Part shown: piece after piece, positions 7,379 to 52,785 of the stretch
Layout: the number at the start of each line of letters is the position of its first letter
Numbering within the stretch: position 1 is the first letter of the stretch
NCBI RefSeq assembly: GCF_002007215.1
Contig: NZ_MUHX01000003.1
Coordinates: forward strand, 62,001 to 126,000
Source: Pyramidobacter sp. C12-8
Lineage (GTDB): Bacteria > Synergistota > Synergistia > Synergistales > Dethiosulfovibrionaceae
DNA length: 64,000 nt
Reading direction: 5' to 3'
Program-made: the position numbers and the translations under genes
Notes under the pieces: model-generated
What the model was told of the DNA's origin: nothing
What the model saw: the letters and a program-made list of their open reading frames with translations, nothing else
Databases searched by the model: none

Positions 7379-8497
7379 ATGAAAAAGAATGCGGAACTGG
7401 CCCCAAAAACTTCTGCCGTTCCTGCCGTGGGGCTGGACACCTTGTGCCAGAATGCGATTCAGCTTATTCAGTACGCTCGCCACACTGCGGCACGGCAGAT
7501 CAACACGGTGCAGTTGATGACCTTTTACTCCATCGGCCGCTGGATTATCGAAGGGCAGCAGCATGGCGAACGGCGGGCAGAATATGGCAGGCAGATTATA
7601 AAAAATTTGTCCGACGTCTTGACGGAACGGTTCGGCAAGGGGTTCTCGGTTGATACGCTCGAGAACGCAAGGAAGTTTTATCTGAATTATCAGGATCGAA
7701 TTTCCGATACGGTGTTTCGGAAATTCGCAGAGGAAAAATCCGATGCGGTGTTTCGGTTTTTGGAGGAAGAACCGCCTTTTAGATTGTCGTTCTCCCATTA
7801 TCTGATCCTTTGCCGTATTCGCAACAATGACGAGAGACGCTTTTACGAGATAGAGGCGTACAAGGGAAACTGGAGCGTCAGAACGCTTCAGCGTCAGTAT
7901 GGCAGTTCGCTGTACGAGAGGCTGCTGTTGGGGGCGGAGAGGAAAAATATTCTCGCCTTGGCTGAAAAAGGGCAGAGCGTCGAGAACGCGGACGACCTGA
8001 AAAAAGACCCTTACGTTCTTGAATTTCTCGGTTTGCAGGATAAGCCGGAGTACGCGGAGTCGGAACTGGAGTCAAGAATCATCGGCCATCTGCAGGAATT
8101 CCTGATGGAAATGGGAAAGGGATTTACATTTGTCGGCAGACAGGTGCGATTCAGTTTTGACGAGGATCATTTCAGGGTAGATTTGGTACTTTATAACAGG
8201 CTTCTGAAGTGTTTTGTGCTGATCGATTTAAAGGTCGGGAAGCTGAAGCACCAAGACATTGGACAGATGCAGATGTACGTAAATTATTACGACAGATACG
8301 AAAAAACGGACGATGAAAATCCTACCGTCGGCATCCTTCTCTGCAGCGACAAAAACGACAGTATGGTCGAAATGACGCTGCCAAAGGACGCAAATATCTA
8401 CGCTTCCAGATACGAATTGTACCTGCCGGATAAAGAAGTCCTGCAAAAGAAACTGAAAGAATGGCTCAAAGAAGAAACCGGGGGCGAGGAACGATGA
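7379..8497 (+). CDS. DUF1016/YhcG-type PD-(D/E)xK nuclease
   Basis: A 372-residue protein of the YhcG family. The N-terminal DUF1016 helical part (about 20-180) contains QLMTFYSIGRWIIEGQQ and the LSFSHYLILCRI block. The C-terminal nuclease fold (about 225-360) has VDLVLYN (D268), FVLIDLKVGKL (D283-x-K285) and MQMYVNYYD, the expected catalytic core. These proteins occur as accessory nucleases next to type I and type III systems. Start ATG at 7379, with GGAGGGG directly after the mod stop; the stop overlaps the res start (ATGA). Residues about 108-130 contain a short near-duplication (ISDTVFRKF / KSDAVFRFL). Contribution to restriction is inferred from position. Confidence 0.85.
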   Translation: MKKNAELAPKTSAVPAVGLDTLCQNAIQLIQYARHTAARQINTVQLMTFYSIGRWIIEGQQHGERRAEYGRQIIKNLSDVLTERFGKGFSVDTLENARKFYLNYQDRISDTVFRKFAEEKSDAVFRFLEEEPPFRLSFSHYLILCRIRNNDERRFYEIEAYKGNWSVRTLQRQYGSSLYERLLLGAERKNILALAEKGQSVENADDLKKDPYVLEFLGLQDKPEYAESELESRIIGHLQEFLMEMGKGFTFVGRQVRFSFDEDHFRVDLVLYNRLLKCFVLIDLKVGKLKHQDIGQMQMYVNYYDRYEKTDDENPTVGILLCSDKNDSMVEMTLPKDANIYASRYELYLPDKEVLQKKLKEWLKEETGGEER

Positions 8498-11400
8498 AGC
8501 TGCGGTTCAAGCGTCAGAAGTTCCAGGCCGACGCGGCCAAGGCGGTCGTCGACGTTTTTGCCGGACAGCCGTATCTCACGCCTTCATATCTGATGGATCG
8601 GGGCGTAAATTATCAGCGGAGCCTGACGGAGGAGGAAGATTACACAGGCTGGCGCAACGAGCGTATTGTGCCGGGGCTTTCCGACGATCGTATTTTGGAG
8701 CAGCTGAACAAGGTTCAGCGGACGAACGGGATCGCTCCTTCCCGAAAGCTGGAAGGACGCTACAATCTGACGGTCGAAATGGAAACGGGCGTCGGCAAAA
8801 CGTATACGTACATCAAGACGATGTACGAACTGAACAAGCATTACGGCTGGAGCAAGTTCATTGTCGTCGTTCCCAGCATTGCGATCCGCGAGGGCGTTTA
8901 CAAGTCTTTCGACGTGACGCAGGAACACTTCGCCGAGGAGTACGGCAGGAAGATCCGTTTCTTTATCTACAACTCCGCACAGCTCACTGAAATCGACCGT
9001 TTTGCCTCGGACAGCGCGATCAACGCCATGATCATCAATTCGCAGGCGTTTAACGCCAGGGGAAAGGACGCGCGGCGCATTTACATGAAGCTGGACGAGT
9101 TCCGCTCCCGCCGGCCGATCGACATTATCGCCAGGACCAACCCTATCCTGATCATTGACGAGCCGCAGTCCGTCGAGGGCAAGCAGACGAAGGAGCGGCT
9201 GAAGGAGTTCAATCCGCTTTTGACGCTGCGCTATTCTGCGACTCACAGGGCCGACAGCGTCTACAACATGGTGTATCGTCTGGACGCGATGGAAGCTTAC
9301 AACAAGCGCCTGGTCAAAAAAATCTCCGTCAAGGGCATCGCCGAGTCCGGTAGCACGGCGACGGACGGATACGTCTATCTGGAGAGCGTCAATCTGTCCA
9401 AGGCCGATCCGACCGCGACGATTCAATTCGACTGCAAAGGCGCGTCCGCCCTCCGAAAGGTGAGCCGAACGGTGGGGATCGGCTTCAATCTCTTCGACCA
9501 CTCCAACGGGATGGAAGAATACAGGGACGGTTACGTGGTGAAGGCGATCGACGGGCGGGACAATTCCGTGGAGTTTCTGAACGGGATCAGGCTGCGCGCG
9601 GGCGACGTGATCGGCGCGGTCGGCGACGACCAGATTCGCCGCATTCAGATCAGGGAAACGATTCTCTCGCACATCGAGCGCGAACGCCGGCTTTTCTGCA
9701 AGGGGATCAAGGTGCTCTCCCTGTTCTTTATCGACGAGGTCGCCAAATACAGGCAGTACGACGCAGCCGGGCAGGCGCGCAACGGCGTTTACGCGGACAT
9801 GTTCGAGGAAGAGTACCGCGACGTCGTCGGCGCCGTACAGCGCGAGATCGGCGACGAACAGTACGTGAAGTATCTGGATTCCATCTCCGCCTGCGAGACT
9901 CACGCCGGATATTTTTCCATCGACAAAAAGGGGCGCATGACCGACGGCAAACTCGGCAACAAGTCGGAAAAAACTTCCGACGACATCGACGCTTACGACC
10001 TGATCATGAAGAACAAGGAACTGCTGCTCGACCGGGATCCAAAACGGTCGCCGGTGCGTTTTATCTTTTCGCATTCGGCTTTGCGCGAAGGCTGGGACAA
10101 TCCCAACGTCTTCCAGATCTGCACGTTGAAGCAGAGCGGCAGCGACGTGCGCAAGCGTCAGGAAGTCGGACGGGGTCTGCGCCTGTGCGTCGATCAGGAT
10201 GGGGAGCGCATGGATACGAACGCGCTCGGCGACGACGTTCACAACGTCAACGTGCTGACGGTCATCGCCAGCGAAAGCTACGACCGTTTCGCCAAAGGGC
10301 TGCAGAACGAACTTGCCGAGGCGGTCGCCGACCGACCGCAGGCAGTCGCGCCCGAACTGTTCAAGGGGCGGGTTCTGAGGGACGCCGACGGCAACGAGCA
10401 GATCGTGGACGGCGAGACGGCTCAGGCAATTTATTTCGATATGATCAAGAACGGCTACGTCGACAAGAGAGGGGCGCTGACCGACACATATTATCGGGAC
10501 AGGGCCAACGGAGAAGTGAAAGTCGCCGAAGAAGCGGCGGACTGCGCCGAATCGGTGATCGCCATCGTGGATTCCATCTACGACGCCAGGCGGATGCAGC
10601 CTGAAAACGCCCGCGACATAAACGTGGAGCTGCGCGTCGATCAGGAAAAACTGGCCATGCCGGAGTTCAAAGAACTTTGGAAGCGTATCAGCCCCAAATC
10701 CGCGTATGCCGTGGACTTCAATACGGACGAGCTGACGAAAAAATCGATCGACGCGCTGAACCGAAAATTGCGCGTGGCGAAAATATACTTCAAGGTCGAG
10801 AGCGGTTCTCTGACGGAAATCACGTCGAAAGAAGACTTGAAGAGCGGCGGCGCTTTTATCAGGGACGCTTCGGCCGTGTATGACGCTGGCAGGAGAATCG
10901 CCGTGAACGGCCGCGTGAAATACGATCTCGTCGGCAAGCTGGTGGAGGAAACCGGCCTGACCCGCAGAGCGATCGTAGAAATCCTTGCCGGCATCGAGAA
11001 AACCGTCTTCGATCAGTTCAGGGAAAACCCGGAGGAATTCATCATCAAGGCGGGGACTCTCATCAACGAAGAGAAGGCGACGGTCATCATTCAGCATATC
11101 GCGTACAACTTGTTGAACGACCGTTACGAAACCGACATCTTTACCGATCCGACCATCAAAGGCCGCTTGGGCGTCAACGCGATGAAGACTCGGAAGCATC
11201 TTTACGATCACATCGTCTACGACTCTTCCAACGAGCAAAAATTTGCCGAAGCGCTCGATACAAGCGGAGAAGTTGCAGTCTACGTTAAACTGCCGGACGG
11301 TTTTTACATTTCCACCCCGGTGGGGCGCTACAATCCCGACTGGGCGATCGCGTTCTATGAAGGCAACGTCAAGCACGTCTACTTCGTCGCGGAGACGAAG

Positions 11401-11547
11401 GGCTCCATGTCATCGATGCAGCTGAGACTGATCGAAGAATCAAAAATCCACTGCGCGCGGGAACATTTCAAGGCGATTAGCAGCGACAGCGTTATCTATG
11501 ACGTCGTAGACAGCTATCAGTCTTTGCTGGATAAGGTCATGAGATGA
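8494..11547 (+). CDS. res: Type III restriction enzyme Res subunit
   Basis: A 1017-residue helicase-nuclease. Walker A METGVGKT is at 96-103, the DEAD-like box IIDEPQS near 221-226, and SATH near 250; a second RecA lobe includes FSHSALREGWDNPNVFQIC and EVGRGLRL. The C-terminal endonuclease has PDW (D949) and AETKGS (E967-x-K969), a PD-(D/E)xK site. Res forms a complex with Mod, moves along DNA after ATP hydrolysis and cuts near the recognition site. Start chosen at ATG 8494, overlapping the previous stop, with GGCGAGGA upstream. It ends the cassette; no obvious terminator follows. Confidence 0.92.
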   Translation: MKLRFKRQKFQADAAKAVVDVFAGQPYLTPSYLMDRGVNYQRSLTEEEDYTGWRNERIVPGLSDDRILEQLNKVQRTNGIAPSRKLEGRYNLTVEMETGVGKTYTYIKTMYELNKHYGWSKFIVVVPSIAIREGVYKSFDVTQEHFAEEYGRKIRFFIYNSAQLTEIDRFASDSAINAMIINSQAFNARGKDARRIYMKLDEFRSRRPIDIIARTNPILIIDEPQSVEGKQTKERLKEFNPLLTLRYSATHRADSVYNMVYRLDAMEAYNKRLVKKISVKGIAESGSTATDGYVYLESVNLSKADPTATIQFDCKGASALRKVSRTVGIGFNLFDHSNGMEEYRDGYVVKAIDGRDNSVEFLNGIRLRAGDVIGAVGDDQIRRIQIRETILSHIERERRLFCKGIKVLSLFFIDEVAKYRQYDAAGQARNGVYADMFEEEYRDVVGAVQREIGDEQYVKYLDSISACETHAGYFSIDKKGRMTDGKLGNKSEKTSDDIDAYDLIMKNKELLLDRDPKRSPVRFIFSHSALREGWDNPNVFQICTLKQSGSDVRKRQEVGRGLRLCVDQDGERMDTNALGDDVHNVNVLTVIASESYDRFAKGLQNELAEAVADRPQAVAPELFKGRVLRDADGNEQIVDGETAQAIYFDMIKNGYVDKRGALTDTYYRDRANGEVKVAEEAADCAESVIAIVDSIYDARRMQPENARDINVELRVDQEKLAMPEFKELWKRISPKSAYAVDFNTDELTKKSIDALNRKLRVAKIYFKVESGSLTEITSKEDLKSGGAFIRDASAVYDAGRRIAVNGRVKYDLVGKLVEETGLTRRAIVEILAGIEKTVFDQFRENPEEFIIKAGTLINEEKATVIIQHIAYNLLNDRYETDIFTDPTIKGRLGVNAMKTRKHLYDHIVYDSSNEQKFAEALDTSGEVAVYVKLPDGFYISTPVGRYNPDWAIAFYEGNVKHVYFVAETKGSMSSMQLRLIEESKIHCAREHFKAISSDSVIYDVVDSYQSLLDKVMR

Positions 11548-11765
11548 GAAATACCGGCGGACGGCGAAAAGCTCCGCAAGCGCGGAAATTTCCATTGGGC
11601 AGAGCGCCCCGTTCCCAAAATAGTTTTCGTAACTTCGTTGAAATATGGATTCAGAGTCGGCGGCAATATGATAAACTGTCGTTCAGCGGCTGAAACGCAG
11701 CGGCTTTTTCTATTGGAGGCGGCCGCGGCGAAAGCTGGAATTTTTAGAGACGGACGGTGAATGGA

Positions 11766-13583
11766 ATGGCTTTGTCGGACACATTGCGCGGTTTGTGGCG
11801 TTGGTTTCTGGACGACGCCGGGCTTCTGGAGCCGGAGAATGGCGGCGAAGACGCGATGCCGGTTGGCGACGATACGCTCTTTGCCGCGCTCGTGGCGGCG
11901 GCGGAAGCGCAGAATGCCACGCTGCCAGCAGGAGACGAAACGCTTTTCGCCGCGCTGGTCGCAGCTGCGGAGGCGAAAAGAAACGAGCGCCCCGCAAGCG
12001 ACGATACGTTTTTCGCCGCGCTGAACGCGGCGGCAGAACTGGAGAGACCGCGCCGCGCGCTCTCCGGGGAAGGAGCGGCGAATGACCTGCCGACTTTGCC
12101 TGAAGAGCTGCCGGACGACCTTGACGGCTTCGCGGCGCCAGCCGTGTGTAAAAGAGGTGATGAAGCGGTTCAAGCGACGGTCATGCTGCCCGCGATGGCG
12201 GAAAATATCGCCGCGGGAGTTCCGGGGCAAGAAGGTACCGACGAGGATCTCGAGACGGCGGCAGCCGCGCCGCGAACCAAAGCTTCCGTCGCGACCAAGG
12301 AAGAGGAAGGCGGCGTTCTCTCCGTCGACGAGCCGCTTCTTTTCCAGTCCGCAGCGGATGATCTCCCGCGGGACGGTGCCGGCTTTTCGAAACCCGACGC
12401 GCGGGGCGCGGAAGGGGAGGAGCTTTTTGCCACCGCCGGCAAGGACGAAACGTTACAGGAGACCCGTGGGCGCCATATGTCGCCGCTCGGGCAGCTTGAC
12501 GGCGAGGAAACGATGAACGAAGAAACCGCTCATGACGGCATTCTGACGGGTATTGGCGAGACACCGTGCGGTCAGGTCGCCGTCAGCGATTCGGCGTGCA
12601 TCGTCCCCGGAGTCGAGCCGCAAGGCGAAGAAAAGGGCATACCCGCGAATATTTCCGCTTCCAGCGCCGAAGTGCGTGGGGCAAGCGATGGCCTCTGGGC
12701 TGCCGAGGCGGCGGAAGAGGCTGACACGCCTCTGGAGCCGCAGCCCGCCGACATTCGCCCGCAGTTGTCCGAGCCGGCGGCATCAACGCCCTTCCGTCAG
12801 AAGCGTATCGTCGTTTCGCTGCTCAAAGGGGGCGTCGGCAAGACGACGATCACCTGCTTTCTGGGCACCGCGATCGAGAAAATCTGGGATGAATACGGTT
12901 CCGAGCGGCGTCTGCTGGTCGTCGACACCGACCCGCAGGGGTCGAGTACCGATTTCTTCCTGCGCGACAAGAAGCCGGAGGAAGCGCGGACGCTGCGCGC
13001 GCTTTTCGAACCGTATCCTTTTCCGGGCGCGGCGAAAACGCTGTTCCACCCGACACGCTACCGCCATATCGACCTGCTGCCGGCGCATATATCCGTTTCC
13101 GACGTCATTCCTTCGCCCGAGGGCGATCGGGAGGCCCGTTTGGCGCAGTATCTGGCCGCGGCGGCCGACGATTATTCGCTGATCCTGATCGACACGCCGC
13201 CTTCCGATACGCTGGCGTTGAGAAACGCGCTGATGGCCGGATCGGGCGTTTTCGTCCCCATCGATCCCAGCCGTCAGGCCATCGCGACGCTGCCCCAGTT
13301 TATCAGCACATTTAGCCGTTACAGCCAGTACAACGCGCAGCTGAAACTTTACGGCGTCATCTTCTCGCGCTACGACAGGCGCCGCGCGCTCGACCGCGAT
13401 ATCCGCGACGCCGTTTCCAAACAGCTCGGTCAGAGCGGCATCCGCTGCCGCGAGGCGCCTAACCGCTCGGCGATCTCAAACTGCTATAACAGCTATCTCG
13501 GCTTCGAAGGACTCGATCCCGCTAAAGACAAGGACGCTTACGACTTTTTCCGCGATCTGGCGCTTCAGGTCCTGATCGCCTGA
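11766..13583 (+). CDS. ParA-type ATPase with long acidic repeat-bearing N-terminal extension
   Basis: The C-terminal 260 residues form a ParA/MinD-type ATPase: IVVSLLKGGVGKTTITCFLG (deviant Walker A, near residue 354), LLVVDTDPQGSSTDFF, and YSLILIDTPPSDTLALRNAL. Such proteins use ATP-driven dimerisation on DNA to move plasmids or chromosomes. Unlike ordinary ParA (about 260 residues), this one has about 350 preceding residues that are acidic, Ala-rich and low in complexity, with three tandem 22-residue repeats near residues 34-95 (core DDTLFAALVAAAEA). The start could be GTG 11757 or ATG 11766; neither has a strong ribosome site. The adjacent small wHTH gene is its likely DNA-binding partner (inference). 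No replication gene is visible nearby. Confidence 0.75.
   Translation: MALSDTLRGLWRWFLDDAGLLEPENGGEDAMPVGDDTLFAALVAAAEAQNATLPAGDETLFAALVAAAEAKRNERPASDDTFFAALNAAAELERPRRALSGEGAANDLPTLPEELPDDLDGFAAPAVCKRGDEAVQATVMLPAMAENIAAGVPGQEGTDEDLETAAAAPRTKASVATKEEEGGVLSVDEPLLFQSAADDLPRDGAGFSKPDARGAEGEELFATAGKDETLQETRGRHMSPLGQLDGEETMNEETAHDGILTGIGETPCGQVAVSDSACIVPGVEPQGEEKGIPANISASSAEVRGASDGLWAAEAAEEADTPLEPQPADIRPQLSEPAASTPFRQKRIVVSLLKGGVGKTTITCFLGTAIEKIWDEYGSERRLLVVDTDPQGSSTDFFLRDKKPEEARTLRALFEPYPFPGAAKTLFHPTRYRHIDLLPAHISVSDVIPSPEGDREARLAQYLAAAADDYSLILIDTPPSDTLALRNALMAGSGVFVPIDPSRQAIATLPQFISTFSRYSQYNAQLKLYGVIFSRYDRRRALDRDIRDAVSKQLGQSGIRCREAPNRSAISNCYNSYLGFEGLDPAKDKDAYDFFRDLALQVLIA
11865..12056 (+). repeat. 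Three tandem 66-bp coding repeats in the parA-like gene
   Basis: Units begin at 11865, 11931 and 11997, an exact 66-bp period, each encoding (G/S)D(D/E)T(L/F)FAAL(V/N)AAAE. The third unit is shortened. Codons differ between units more than residues do, so the repeat appears kept at protein level. Confidence 0.8.
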
Positions 13584-13605
13584 GGCAGAGGAGGAGCGAT
13601 TTTTA

Positions 13606-14028
13606 ATGGCAAAAAGCACGGATGAAAATTTTTTGGGCGCTGAGATCACTGACGCTCTGAATCTTTTGGGAAAAATCGTCCAAGGCGCTCCCGACGCGCC
13701 GCACCCTCCCGAGCCGACGCCTGCCCCCGTTCCTGCCGCGGCCGACGACGAGCCGTTGCTCGTATGGTACCGCGCCATGAAGCCGCGCACGATGTGCAGA
13801 CTGCTGTGGATGGTGCTGCTGCAATGGCAGGCGCGGCGCAGCGGCGGACGGATCCATTTCGAAGAATTCGCGGCGCTGCTTGGAGTGAAGAAGGAGAAGG
13901 TCGCCCAAGCGCTGCGCGACCTGAGCAAGCTCGGCTGGATCGAGATCACGGCTACGGAAACGGGACCGCGGCGGCGCATCATCAGCCGCACCGTCGCCGT
14001 CAAGACGTCGCGGCAGGAGCTCTCGTGA
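13606..14028 (+). CDS. Small winged-helix protein, likely ParA partner
   Basis: A 140-residue protein. Residues 1-45 are a flexible, Pro/Ala-rich arm that could stimulate the ATPase. Residues about 55-125 look like a winged helix: a helix with MCRLLWMVLLQWQARRSGG, then FEEFAALLGVKKEKVAQALRDLSKLGWIEI (helix-turn-helix), and a basic wing GPRRRIISRTVAVK. It starts 22 bp after the ATPase stop with GAGGAGG upstream, so it is surely in the same operon. By analogy with plasmid partition pairs, it would bind a centromere-like repeat; the iterons at 14211-14250 are a candidate. I recognise no named family. Confidence 0.65.
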   Translation: MAKSTDENFLGAEITDALNLLGKIVQGAPDAPHPPEPTPAPVPAAADDEPLLVWYRAMKPRTMCRLLWMVLLQWQARRSGGRIHFEEFAALLGVKKEKVAQALRDLSKLGWIEITATETGPRRRIISRTVAVKTSRQELS

Positions 14029-14200
14029 ATCACGCGTTTTTGCACGAGCGTTGAATGGCGAAAACGCGAGATTTCGTGAGCTTTCCTGTTTGTGTACAGA
14101 GCCTCTCTTTTTTTGCAAGCGCTTACTGCAGCTCCCCTCGTGTTTTTTCAGACCGGCAAGGACCCAACGGCAAATTTGCTTTCCACCCCGATTTTTGCGA

Positions 14201-14260
14201 TTGAATCGTCCCTATCCTTTCCTATTCAAGGCTATCGGGTCCTATCGCATTTGAATCTAT
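14201..14260 (+). promoter_or_regulatory. 10-bp-period iteron array upstream of the MATE promoter
   Basis: CCTATC, CCTATT, GCTATC and CCTATC begin at exactly 14211, 14221, 14231 and 14241, one helical turn apart, framed by TTGAATC at 14201 and 14251. The second TTGAAT is also the -35 of the following promoter. It could be an operator, or a centromere for the neighbouring ParA/wHTH pair. The rest of the gap 14029-14200 shows nothing recognisable. Confidence 0.6.
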
Positions 14261-14278
14261 TCGATTTTCATATATAAT
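14251..14278 (+). promoter_or_regulatory. Promoter of the MATE exporter gene
   Basis: TTGAAT (14251-14256), 16-bp spacer, TATAAT (14273-14278), about 125 bp upstream of the MATE start. It overlaps the iteron array, so a protein bound there would probably affect it. Confidence 0.6.
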
Positions 14279-14401
14279 GTAATCATGCGCATGAGGAATT
14301 CCATGAGGAATTTCCACACTCCACTTGAGAAGGAAAAAGTGAATGTAGACAAAAATTTTGTCCCGCGTTCGTGTCTGAATTCGAAATGAGGTTGATTTAT
14401 C

Positions 14402-15796
14402 ATGACTCAGACTTCCACGTTGACCAGCATGAGTCAGGGCTCCGTCGCCCGTTTGCTCTTCCGGTTTTCTGCGCCTGCCACGCTTGGCCTTGTGGCCAAC
14501 GCCTTTTACAACATCGTCGACCGTCTCTTCATCGGCCGTTTCACCGGCGCCGACGGTCTTGGCGCCGTCGGACTGACGTTTCCGCTGACGGTTTTCGTGA
14601 TCGCCGTCGGCTCGCTCGTCGGCGTCGGCGCCGCATCGCAGATGTCGCGCCTGCTCGGCGAGGGACGGCGTCGGGATGCCGAAACGGTCCTCGGTAACGC
14701 CGCGGCGGTCATGACGCTGTTCGCCGCGCTTTTCACGGCCGCGGGGCTGTTCTGCCTCGACGGGCTGGTGAAAGCGTTCGGCGCCTCGCCCCATCTGGCG
14801 CCGCAGACTCGCATTTACACGGAAATTTTGTTCTGGGGAATGCCCTTCAACCTGTTGGGATTCTCGCTGAACTATCTGATCCGCGCCGAGGGGCACCCCC
14901 GTTACGCCATGTGGACGCTGTGCGTCGGCGCGGGCATGAACGTGTTCCTGGACTGGCTCTTCATTGCGCGCATGCGCATGGGCATCGCCGGGGCGGCGCT
15001 GGGGACGTCGCTGGCCCAGATCGCCTCGTTCGTCTGGGTGGCGCTGTTTTATCTCAAGGGCGCGGGATCGCTGCGGATCAGCGCCGCGTCGCTGAAACCC
15101 AATGGGGACATCGTCAGGGAGATGCTCCTTGTGGGCGCCTCTCCCTTTTTAATGGAGCTCTTTTACACGGTCAGCATGATGCTCTTCAACAACGTTGTCA
15201 ACGATCTCGGCGGCGATCTGGCCATTTCGGCCGTGGGCATCTTCTTTTGCTTGGACAACCTGATCTATCTGCCCGTGTTCGGCGTCGGCGAAGGGCTTCA
15301 GCCCATTGTCGGCTACAACTACGGCGCCCAGCGGTCGGACCGCGTCAAACGCACGATTTTATGCGCGCTTGCCGTCAGCTCCGTCTATTTCGCGATTTCG
15401 TTCATCGGCGCCGAGTCTCTTACGCGCGCCATGGTCACGCTCTTCGCGGCCGACGACGAGGCCTTGATCCGCCTCACGGTGCGGGCCATGCGCATCGGCT
15501 ATCTTGGCATGCCTTTTGCGGCGGCAGGCATCGTCGCCTCGAACGCGTTTCTCGCCGTGGGACGTTCGGGCGTGAGTCTGTTCCTCAACTTCTGCCGCCA
15601 GGGGTTCCTTTTCCTGCCGGCGCTGTTGGTTCTGCCGCAGCTGATGGGCCTTGACGGCGCGTGGAGCTGTTTCATCGTCGTCGATGTCGGAGGCGGGCTG
15701 ATCGGCGCCATTCTGCTGTGGTATTTCTGGGAGAGCTTCAACGGCGGCGATCGCGACCTTCTCGGCACTCAGCTCGAAATCGCGTTCAATAAGTAG
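14402..15796 (+). CDS. MATE-family efflux transporter
   Basis: A 464-residue inner-membrane protein with about 12 hydrophobic segments and the two-fold repeated architecture of MATE exporters. The first repeat has LLFRFSAPATLGLVANAFYNIVDRLFIGRFTGADGLGAVGLTFP; the second has PFLMELFYTVSMMLFNNVV and GVGEGLQPIVGYNYGAQR. These proteins exchange Na+ or H+ for cationic drugs or metabolites, and this one is closest in layout to the MepA/NorM-like branch. ATG at 14402 with GAGGT upstream. It is a single-gene unit with its own promoter and terminator. Substrate cannot be told from sequence. Confidence 0.9.
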   Translation: MTQTSTLTSMSQGSVARLLFRFSAPATLGLVANAFYNIVDRLFIGRFTGADGLGAVGLTFPLTVFVIAVGSLVGVGAASQMSRLLGEGRRRDAETVLGNAAAVMTLFAALFTAAGLFCLDGLVKAFGASPHLAPQTRIYTEILFWGMPFNLLGFSLNYLIRAEGHPRYAMWTLCVGAGMNVFLDWLFIARMRMGIAGAALGTSLAQIASFVWVALFYLKGAGSLRISAASLKPNGDIVREMLLVGASPFLMELFYTVSMMLFNNVVNDLGGDLAISAVGIFFCLDNLIYLPVFGVGEGLQPIVGYNYGAQRSDRVKRTILCALAVSSVYFAISFIGAESLTRAMVTLFAADDEALIRLTVRAMRIGYLGMPFAAAGIVASNAFLAVGRSGVSLFLNFCRQGFLFLPALLVLPQLMGLDGAWSCFIVVDVGGGLIGAILLWYFWESFNGGDRDLLGTQLEIAFNK

Positions 15797-52659: not shown

Positions 52660-52684
52660 ACCCGTCAATCAAACAGCGCAACTT

Positions 52685-52785
52685 TTATCAAGAGTCAGGG
52701 GAGAGAGTCAGCTCGATGATCCTGCACCAACCTGCCCGCACGGGGAAAGGTGGTCCTGCTGACAGCGATGAGGGGAAGCCTCAAA
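52685..52785 (+). ncRNA. SAM-I (S-box) riboswitch aptamer
   Basis: Key conserved parts appear in order: TTATCAAGAG, GGGGAGAGAG, CGATGAT, GCACCAACC, then GGTG and a closing segment. They match the S-box layout of aptamer stems P1 to P4. Its place before a methionine transporter operon fits. SAM binding should favour the terminator that follows. Confidence 0.85.

What the first reader, a model, noticed from the sequence alone, without database searches (positions are those of the whole stretch)
14201..14260. Exact 10-bp-period iteron array next to a ParA/winged-helix pair
CCTATC-like hexamers start at 14211, 14221, 14231 and 14241, framed by TTGAATC at 14201 and 14251. All six lie in one 10-bp phase, so a protein array could bind one DNA face. 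It sits 170 bp after the wHTH gene and covers the promoter of the MATE gene. It may be the centromere/operator of an undescribed chromosomal partition-like module that also controls an efflux gene.
Basis: partly seen in the sequence, partly recalled or inferred. Interest (0 to 1): 0.65.

Follow-up and report, generated by a model that had tools for sequence, protein, structure and literature searches.

The report
Tandem operator of an efflux-pump gene
The evenly spaced DNA repeats are a conserved control element in front of a drug-efflux-type (MATE) gene, probably the landing site of an unidentified regulatory protein, and are not a DNA-partition centromere, because relatives that lost or never had the neighbouring ParA/wHTH genes keep the repeats.

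Summary
The repeats are real: four SCTATY hexamers at 14211, 14221, 14231 and 14241, exactly 10 bp apart. The array occurs once in the genome. It is present in 5 of the 6 genomes of the genus, always in front of the orthologous MATE gene, and in none of the other 182 genomes of the phylum that were searched. It abuts a sigma-70-like promoter (TTGAAT 14251, TATAAT 14273). Between species, 2 of 24 hexamer positions vary against 7 of 12 spacer positions, and alignable conservation starts at about 14190. That is the footprint of a protein-binding site.

Two relatives carry independent deletion scars of the ParA/wHTH genes and keep the array and promoter. A third has an unrelated gene upstream and no detected wHTH, yet keeps the array. 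Paralogous ParA/wHTH pairs elsewhere lack the repeats. The outer TTGAATC motifs are not a conserved frame: one is the -35 element and the other drifts.

Best reading: a tandem-half-site operator, probably for an activator binding head-to-tail just upstream of -35, devoted to the MATE gene. The binding protein was not identified. The mRNA leader also has a conserved hairpin. This is a new instance of a known kind of promoter architecture.

The parts
14211..14246 (+). Core array: four SCTATY half-sites (14211-14216, 14221-14226, 14231-14236, 14241-14246), 10-bp period, direct orientation
   Evidence: conserved in five genomes with variable spacers
14190..14208 (+). Conserved block GATTTTTGNGATNNAATCG immediately upstream of the array; possible extension of the binding site (the 14201 TTGAATC lies inside it and is itself not conserved)
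   Evidence: Alignment of five genomes; alignable conservation to G002 begins about here
14251..14278 (+). Sigma-70-like promoter: -35 TTGAAT (14251-14256), 16-bp spacer, -10 TATAAT (14273-14278); inferred start near 14285
   Evidence: 10 of 12 matches; 0.7 expected by chance in the scanned region; -10 and spacer almost invariant in five genomes
14285..14401 (+). Inferred 5' leader of the MATE mRNA (about 117 nt)
   Evidence: Inference from the promoter position; 79% identical to G002, against 45% upstream of the array
14295..14314 (+). Leader hairpin 1 (GGAATTCC-ATGA-GGAATTTC); explains the 12-bp tandem repeat reported at 14290-14312; could also be a DNA inverted-repeat operator
   Evidence: 8 pairs, all kept in 4 distinct sequences, one compensatory change (T-A to G-C), two pairs with one-sided changes
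14348..14362 (+). Leader hairpin 2 (GACAAA-AAT-TTTGTC); the stem is invariant although the loop region is 4 nt longer in G002
14339..14389 (+). Possible 16-codon leader ORF (GTG...TGA) behind a conserved GAGAAGGA, stop overlapping the MATE ribosome-binding site; weak, because its codons are not conserved in G002
   Evidence: Direct reading
14402..15796 (+). MATE-family efflux transporter, 464 aa; the gene that the array travels with
   Evidence: PF01554 1.8e-44; TIGR00797 above cut-off; orthologues at 70-98% identity carry the array
11757..13583 (+). ParA-like ATPase gene with long N-terminal extension; a neighbour, judged not part of the element
   Evidence: deleted or absent in three array-bearing genomes
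13606..14028 (+). 140-aa winged-helix protein gene; a neighbour, judged not part of the element

Best explanation
The array is a cis-regulatory operator of the MATE gene. A DNA-binding protein places subunits head-to-tail on four SCTATY half-sites, one per helical turn and so on one DNA face, at about -74 to -39. From there it most likely recruits RNA polymerase to the adjacent promoter, which has an imperfect -35 (TTGAAT or TTGGAT) and a perfect -10, switching on the transporter in response to an unknown signal. Shown here: the array, its single occurrence, its strict linkage to the MATE promoter, conservation of hexamers over spacers, and its independence of the ParA/wHTH genes. Inferred: protein binding, head-to-tail assembly, activation rather than repression. 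Unknown: the protein and the signal.
For: One array per genome, in five of six genus genomes, always in front of the MATE orthologue; none in the other 182 phylum genomes searched, nor in the sixth genus member, which has no close MATE orthologue. Hexamers vary at 2 of 24 positions, spacers at 7 of 12 (Fisher P 0.0025; the sequences are related, so indicative only); identity to G002 jumps from 45% upstream to 80% across array and promoter. The array ends 4 bp before a -35/-10 pair that is the only promoter match in the scanned region. Unlinked from ParA/wHTH in G001, G003 and G002. Predicted static curvature of the array is ordinary (about 16% of window stretches bend at least as much), which favours sequence-specific recognition.
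Against: No binding protein identified and no binding or expression data. The sequences represent in effect two lineages (four genomes at 97-98% and one at 70% MATE identity). Activation is inferred from position only; a repressor or roadblock is not excluded. A regulator with a single target is usually encoded next to it, and none is conserved beside this gene.
Confidence: 0.72

Rival explanations
1. Partition module: the wHTH protein binds the array as a centromere/operator, ParA acts on the complex, and the MATE gene is controlled as a by-product.
For: The pair lies directly upstream in this genome and in G131; small centromere-binding proteins of type Ib partition systems do bind direct repeats and act as repressors (PMC5016525). 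Paralogous pairs in G000, G001, G003 and G004 could in principle act in trans.
Against: Array kept after two independent deletions of the pair and present without any trace of it in G002. Paralogous pairs have no such array. G004 has a pair but no array; G002 has the array but no detectable wHTH (both assemblies are only 82-83% complete). The array lies downstream of the pair at another gene's promoter.
Confidence: 0.06
2. Repressor operator: the same tandem sites are occupied by a repressor that blocks RNA polymerase at -35 and is released when a transported compound is present.
For: Many drug-efflux genes are under local repressors (general knowledge); the -10 is perfect and the -35 moderate; an inverted repeat at 14295-14314 could be a second operator.
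Against: The array stops upstream of -35 rather than covering -35/-10, and spans about -74 to -39, the usual activator zone.
Confidence: 0.2
3. OmpR/PhoB-type response-regulator boxes: the array is a run of half-sites of such a regulator, as at torCAD or ArcA sites.
For: Closest architecture: decameric tor boxes (PMC9239176); ArcA sites with three to five direct repeats at 11 bp (PMC3798270).
Against: The genome has one protein with a Trans_reg_C domain, in the pst-phoU operon, i.e. PhoB-like. The pst promoter shows TTTAC repeats 11 bp apart and no CTATC array.
Confidence: 0.08
4. Chance array or mere tandem-repeat DNA without function.
For: On a generic four-hexamer score several other stretches of the window reach the same value; decamer tandem repeats containing CTATC are common in unrelated genomes.
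Against: Unlike most of those repeats, the spacers here differ from each other and drift while the hexamers stay.
Confidence: 0.06

Closest known systems
tor boxes of the torCAD promoter (TorR, OmpR/PhoB-family response regulator)
   Same: Several direct decameric repeats (CTGTTCATAT) in a regulatory region bound by an activator (PMC9239176)
   Different: Other sequence; no TorR-like regulator here, the only protein of that family is PhoB-like; binder and signal unknown
ArcA multi-repeat sites (E. coli)
   Same: Three to five direct repeats one helical turn apart (PMC3798270)
   Different: 11-bp spacing and a global regulon; here 10 bp and a single site in the genome
BldC-type operators (MerR-like, Streptomyces)
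   Same: Head-to-tail cooperative binding to a variable number of direct repeats (PMC5859096)
   Different: BldC repeats are 9 bp with consensus AATTxxxx(C); BldC has a large regulon; no BldC homologue was tied to this array (one or more MerR-family proteins exist in all six genomes)
Type Ib plasmid centromeres (e.g. pSM19035 parS, pCXC100 centromere)
   Same: Tandem direct repeats bound by a small DNA-binding partner of ParA (PMC5016525)
   Different: Those sites belong to their par system; this array stays with the MATE gene when the par-like genes are lost

Membership tests
ParA-type partition centromere | Site is genetically linked to, and inherited with, the ParA and centromere-binding protein genes | tested here: not met
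   Array kept in G001 and G003 after deletion of the pair and in G002 without it; paralogous pairs lack it
ParA-type partition centromere | Site is bound by the centromere-binding protein encoded beside ParA | not testable with these tools
   Needs a binding assay
ParA-type partition centromere | A ParA-family ATPase and a small DNA-binding protein are encoded nearby | tested here: met
   (ParA-like); wHTH only a weak Crp-type HTH match; true in G000 and G131 only
OmpR/PhoB-family response-regulator operator | Direct repeats 10-11 bp apart upstream of -35 | tested here: met
OmpR/PhoB-family response-regulator operator | A cognate Trans_reg_C regulator plausibly linked to the gene | tested here: not met
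   Only one such gene in the genome, the PhoB-like one in pst-phoU; its own pst promoter has a different repeat
LytTR- or AraC-regulated promoter | Such a regulator present in the array-bearing genomes | tested here: inconclusive
   LytTR in none of G000, G131, G001 or G003, one in G002; AraC in those four but none in G002, which is 82% complete
Conserved cis-regulatory operator (general) | Positional conservation at an orthologous promoter with half-sites more conserved than spacers | tested here: met
Conserved cis-regulatory operator (general) | Specific protein binding that changes transcription | not testable with these tools
   Needs an experiment

The most novel reading that the evidence does not exclude
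A genus-specific regulator of a not yet described family assembles head-to-tail on the decamer array, and together with a structured mRNA leader (conserved hairpins, possible leader ORF) gives two-layer control of a MATE pump.
Probability: 0.12. Interest if true: 0.5.

Novelty: new member of a known kind. Interest (0 to 1): 0.27.

Why it matters
It corrects a tempting misreading (ParA plus repeats taken as a centromere) using natural deletions as the test. It also gives a well-delimited, conserved operator from which the regulator of an efflux gene in a little-studied bacterial group can be fished out. If a new regulator family binds it, that would add to the short list of proteins that use tandem direct repeats.

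Tried and rejected
Partition centromere: rejected by natural deletions and by array-free paralogous loci. Known RNA element: no Rfam match in or near the leader; the weak ones (E 1.5 or worse) are meaningless. Single-strand hairpin of the array: z about -1, nothing. PhoB: the pst promoter has a different repeat. Other tandem sites in the genus: the few other exact pairs of half-sites lie in coding DNA (including a coding start shared by G000 and G131), in one case between genes in G002, and in one case (G004 C374) in front of a gene but downstream of a -10-like sequence; none recurs across species at a promoter. Collection scans for four CTATY at 10 bp gave mostly exact decamer repeats and Bacteroidales intergenic repeats. 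One viral contig (L238) has a similar four-copy array in front of a gene, but its neighbours have only unknown-function or weak HTH matches and nothing ties it to this locus. wHTH relatives on plasmids or phages: none. A 16-codon leader ORF was considered; its codons shift frame in G002, so it is weak.

Full report
OBSERVATION. The four-copy pattern is unique in the window, and no other three-copy array with up to 2 mismatches exists in the own genome apart from one weak chance hit. On a generic score, 3 of 2000 shuffles of the intergenic region do as well at any period from 7 to 24 bp. This alone is suggestive, not overwhelming; conservation decides.

COMPARISON. A search of 188 genomes of the phylum for the four-copy array (up to 3 mismatches) found it in five, all of one genus, once each. 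All five carry it in front of the orthologue of the MATE gene: own, G131 (98%), G001 (98%), G003 (97%) and G002 (70% identity). The sixth genus member, G004 (83% complete), has neither the array nor a close orthologue. More distant MATE relatives (47-50%) in the sister genus lack it (for three of them; for the genomes). Aligned, identity between this window and G002 is 45% upstream (14029-14189), 80% from 14190 to 14284 and 79% in the leader. Within the array, 2 of 24 hexamer positions vary against 7 of 12 spacer positions. In the second half-site CCTATT becomes TCTATC, so its core is kept.

PROMOTER. A sigma-70-like promoter (TTGAAT, 16 bp, TATAAT) begins 4 bp after the last hexamer. The start site inferred from it is about 14285, placing the array at about -74 to -39. 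The TTGAATC at 14251 is therefore the -35 element. The one at 14201 is not conserved as a heptamer, although the block GATNNAATCG around it is.

PARA/wHTH. The pair is intact beside the array only here and in G131. G001 keeps fragments of parA matching 11961-12117 and 12487-12585, then resumes at 13994. G003 keeps 32 bp matching 12380-12411, then resumes at 14010. The different end points indicate two separate deletions, both removing the ATPase domain and nearly all of the wHTH gene while sparing the array and promoter. G002 has a lactate-racemase-like gene (named from recall of its sequence, not tested) upstream and no trace of the pair. Paralogous pairs (about 40-48% identity in the wHTH) exist at other loci in G000, G001, G003 and G004 without any such array. 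The proposed refutation is thus met.

WHO BINDS. Not established. Direct repeats one turn apart just upstream of -35 are typical of OmpR/PhoB-family regulators (TorR, PMC9239176; ArcA, PMC3798270), but the genome has a single such protein, PhoB-like by its pst-phoU neighbourhood. The pst promoter contains TTTAC-N6-TTTAC, a different, 11-bp repeat. LytTR is absent from four array-bearing genomes and AraC from the fifth (G002 is incomplete). A BldC-like or other head-to-tail binder (PMC5859096) is possible; MerR-family proteins exist in all six genomes but nothing links them to the array. No second promoter with even two exact half-sites at this spacing was found conserved across species, so the element appears to serve one gene.

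LEADER. The 117-nt leader has two hairpins kept in all sequences. Hairpin 1 shows one compensatory and two one-sided changes, but only four distinct sequences exist and shuffles reach the same score in 116 of 500 cases, so this is a lead. The leader of G002 folds better than shuffles (z -3.2), that of this genome does not (z -0.9). No Rfam family matches. Leader-mediated control of a multidrug transporter is known for bmrCD (PMC4191407).

ORGANISM. From memory of its features the genus looks like Pyramidobacter (Synergistota); this was not tested and nothing rests on it.

VERDICT. A conserved tandem-half-site operator of a MATE gene, probably for an activator. The partition interpretation is not supported. 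Ordinary in kind, new as an instance, regulator unknown.

Noticed in passing
11757-14028: ParA-like ATPase with a long Ala/Glu-rich N-terminal extension plus a 140-aa wHTH protein; the wHTH was found in genus members, plus one weak hit elsewhere among 41 genomes, with a paralogous pair elsewhere in the own genome (C144); no plasmid or phage relatives of the wHTH. Function open.
   Followed up: partly
14028-14073: Long inverted repeat just after the wHTH stop (AATCACGCGTTTTTGC / GCGAAAACGCGAGATT), kept also in G001 and G003 where the wHTH gene is deleted; no T-run follows.
   Followed up: partly
14285-14401: MATE mRNA leader with two conserved hairpins and a possible 16-codon leader ORF whose stop overlaps the MATE ribosome-binding site.
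   Followed up: partly
8461-11547: Type III restriction enzyme subunit gene directly upstream of parA; the stretch of G131 compared here matches the window only from 11625 onward, so the upstream neighbourhood differs within the species.
   Followed up: no
52682-52774: SAM riboswitch (RF00162, 48.7 bits against a gathering score of 44.4).
   Followed up: no
L238:2708-2743: Viral contig with a four-copy CCTATC-type 10-bp array near a TATAAT, in front of a gene of unknown function (phrog_6948 match); resembles this array without detectable kinship.
   Followed up: partly
L065, L069, L071, L089, L137 and others: Exact decamer tandem repeats containing CTATY occur in intergenic DNA of many unrelated bacteria and in a Methanosarcina MAG, several with ten or more copies.
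   Followed up: no
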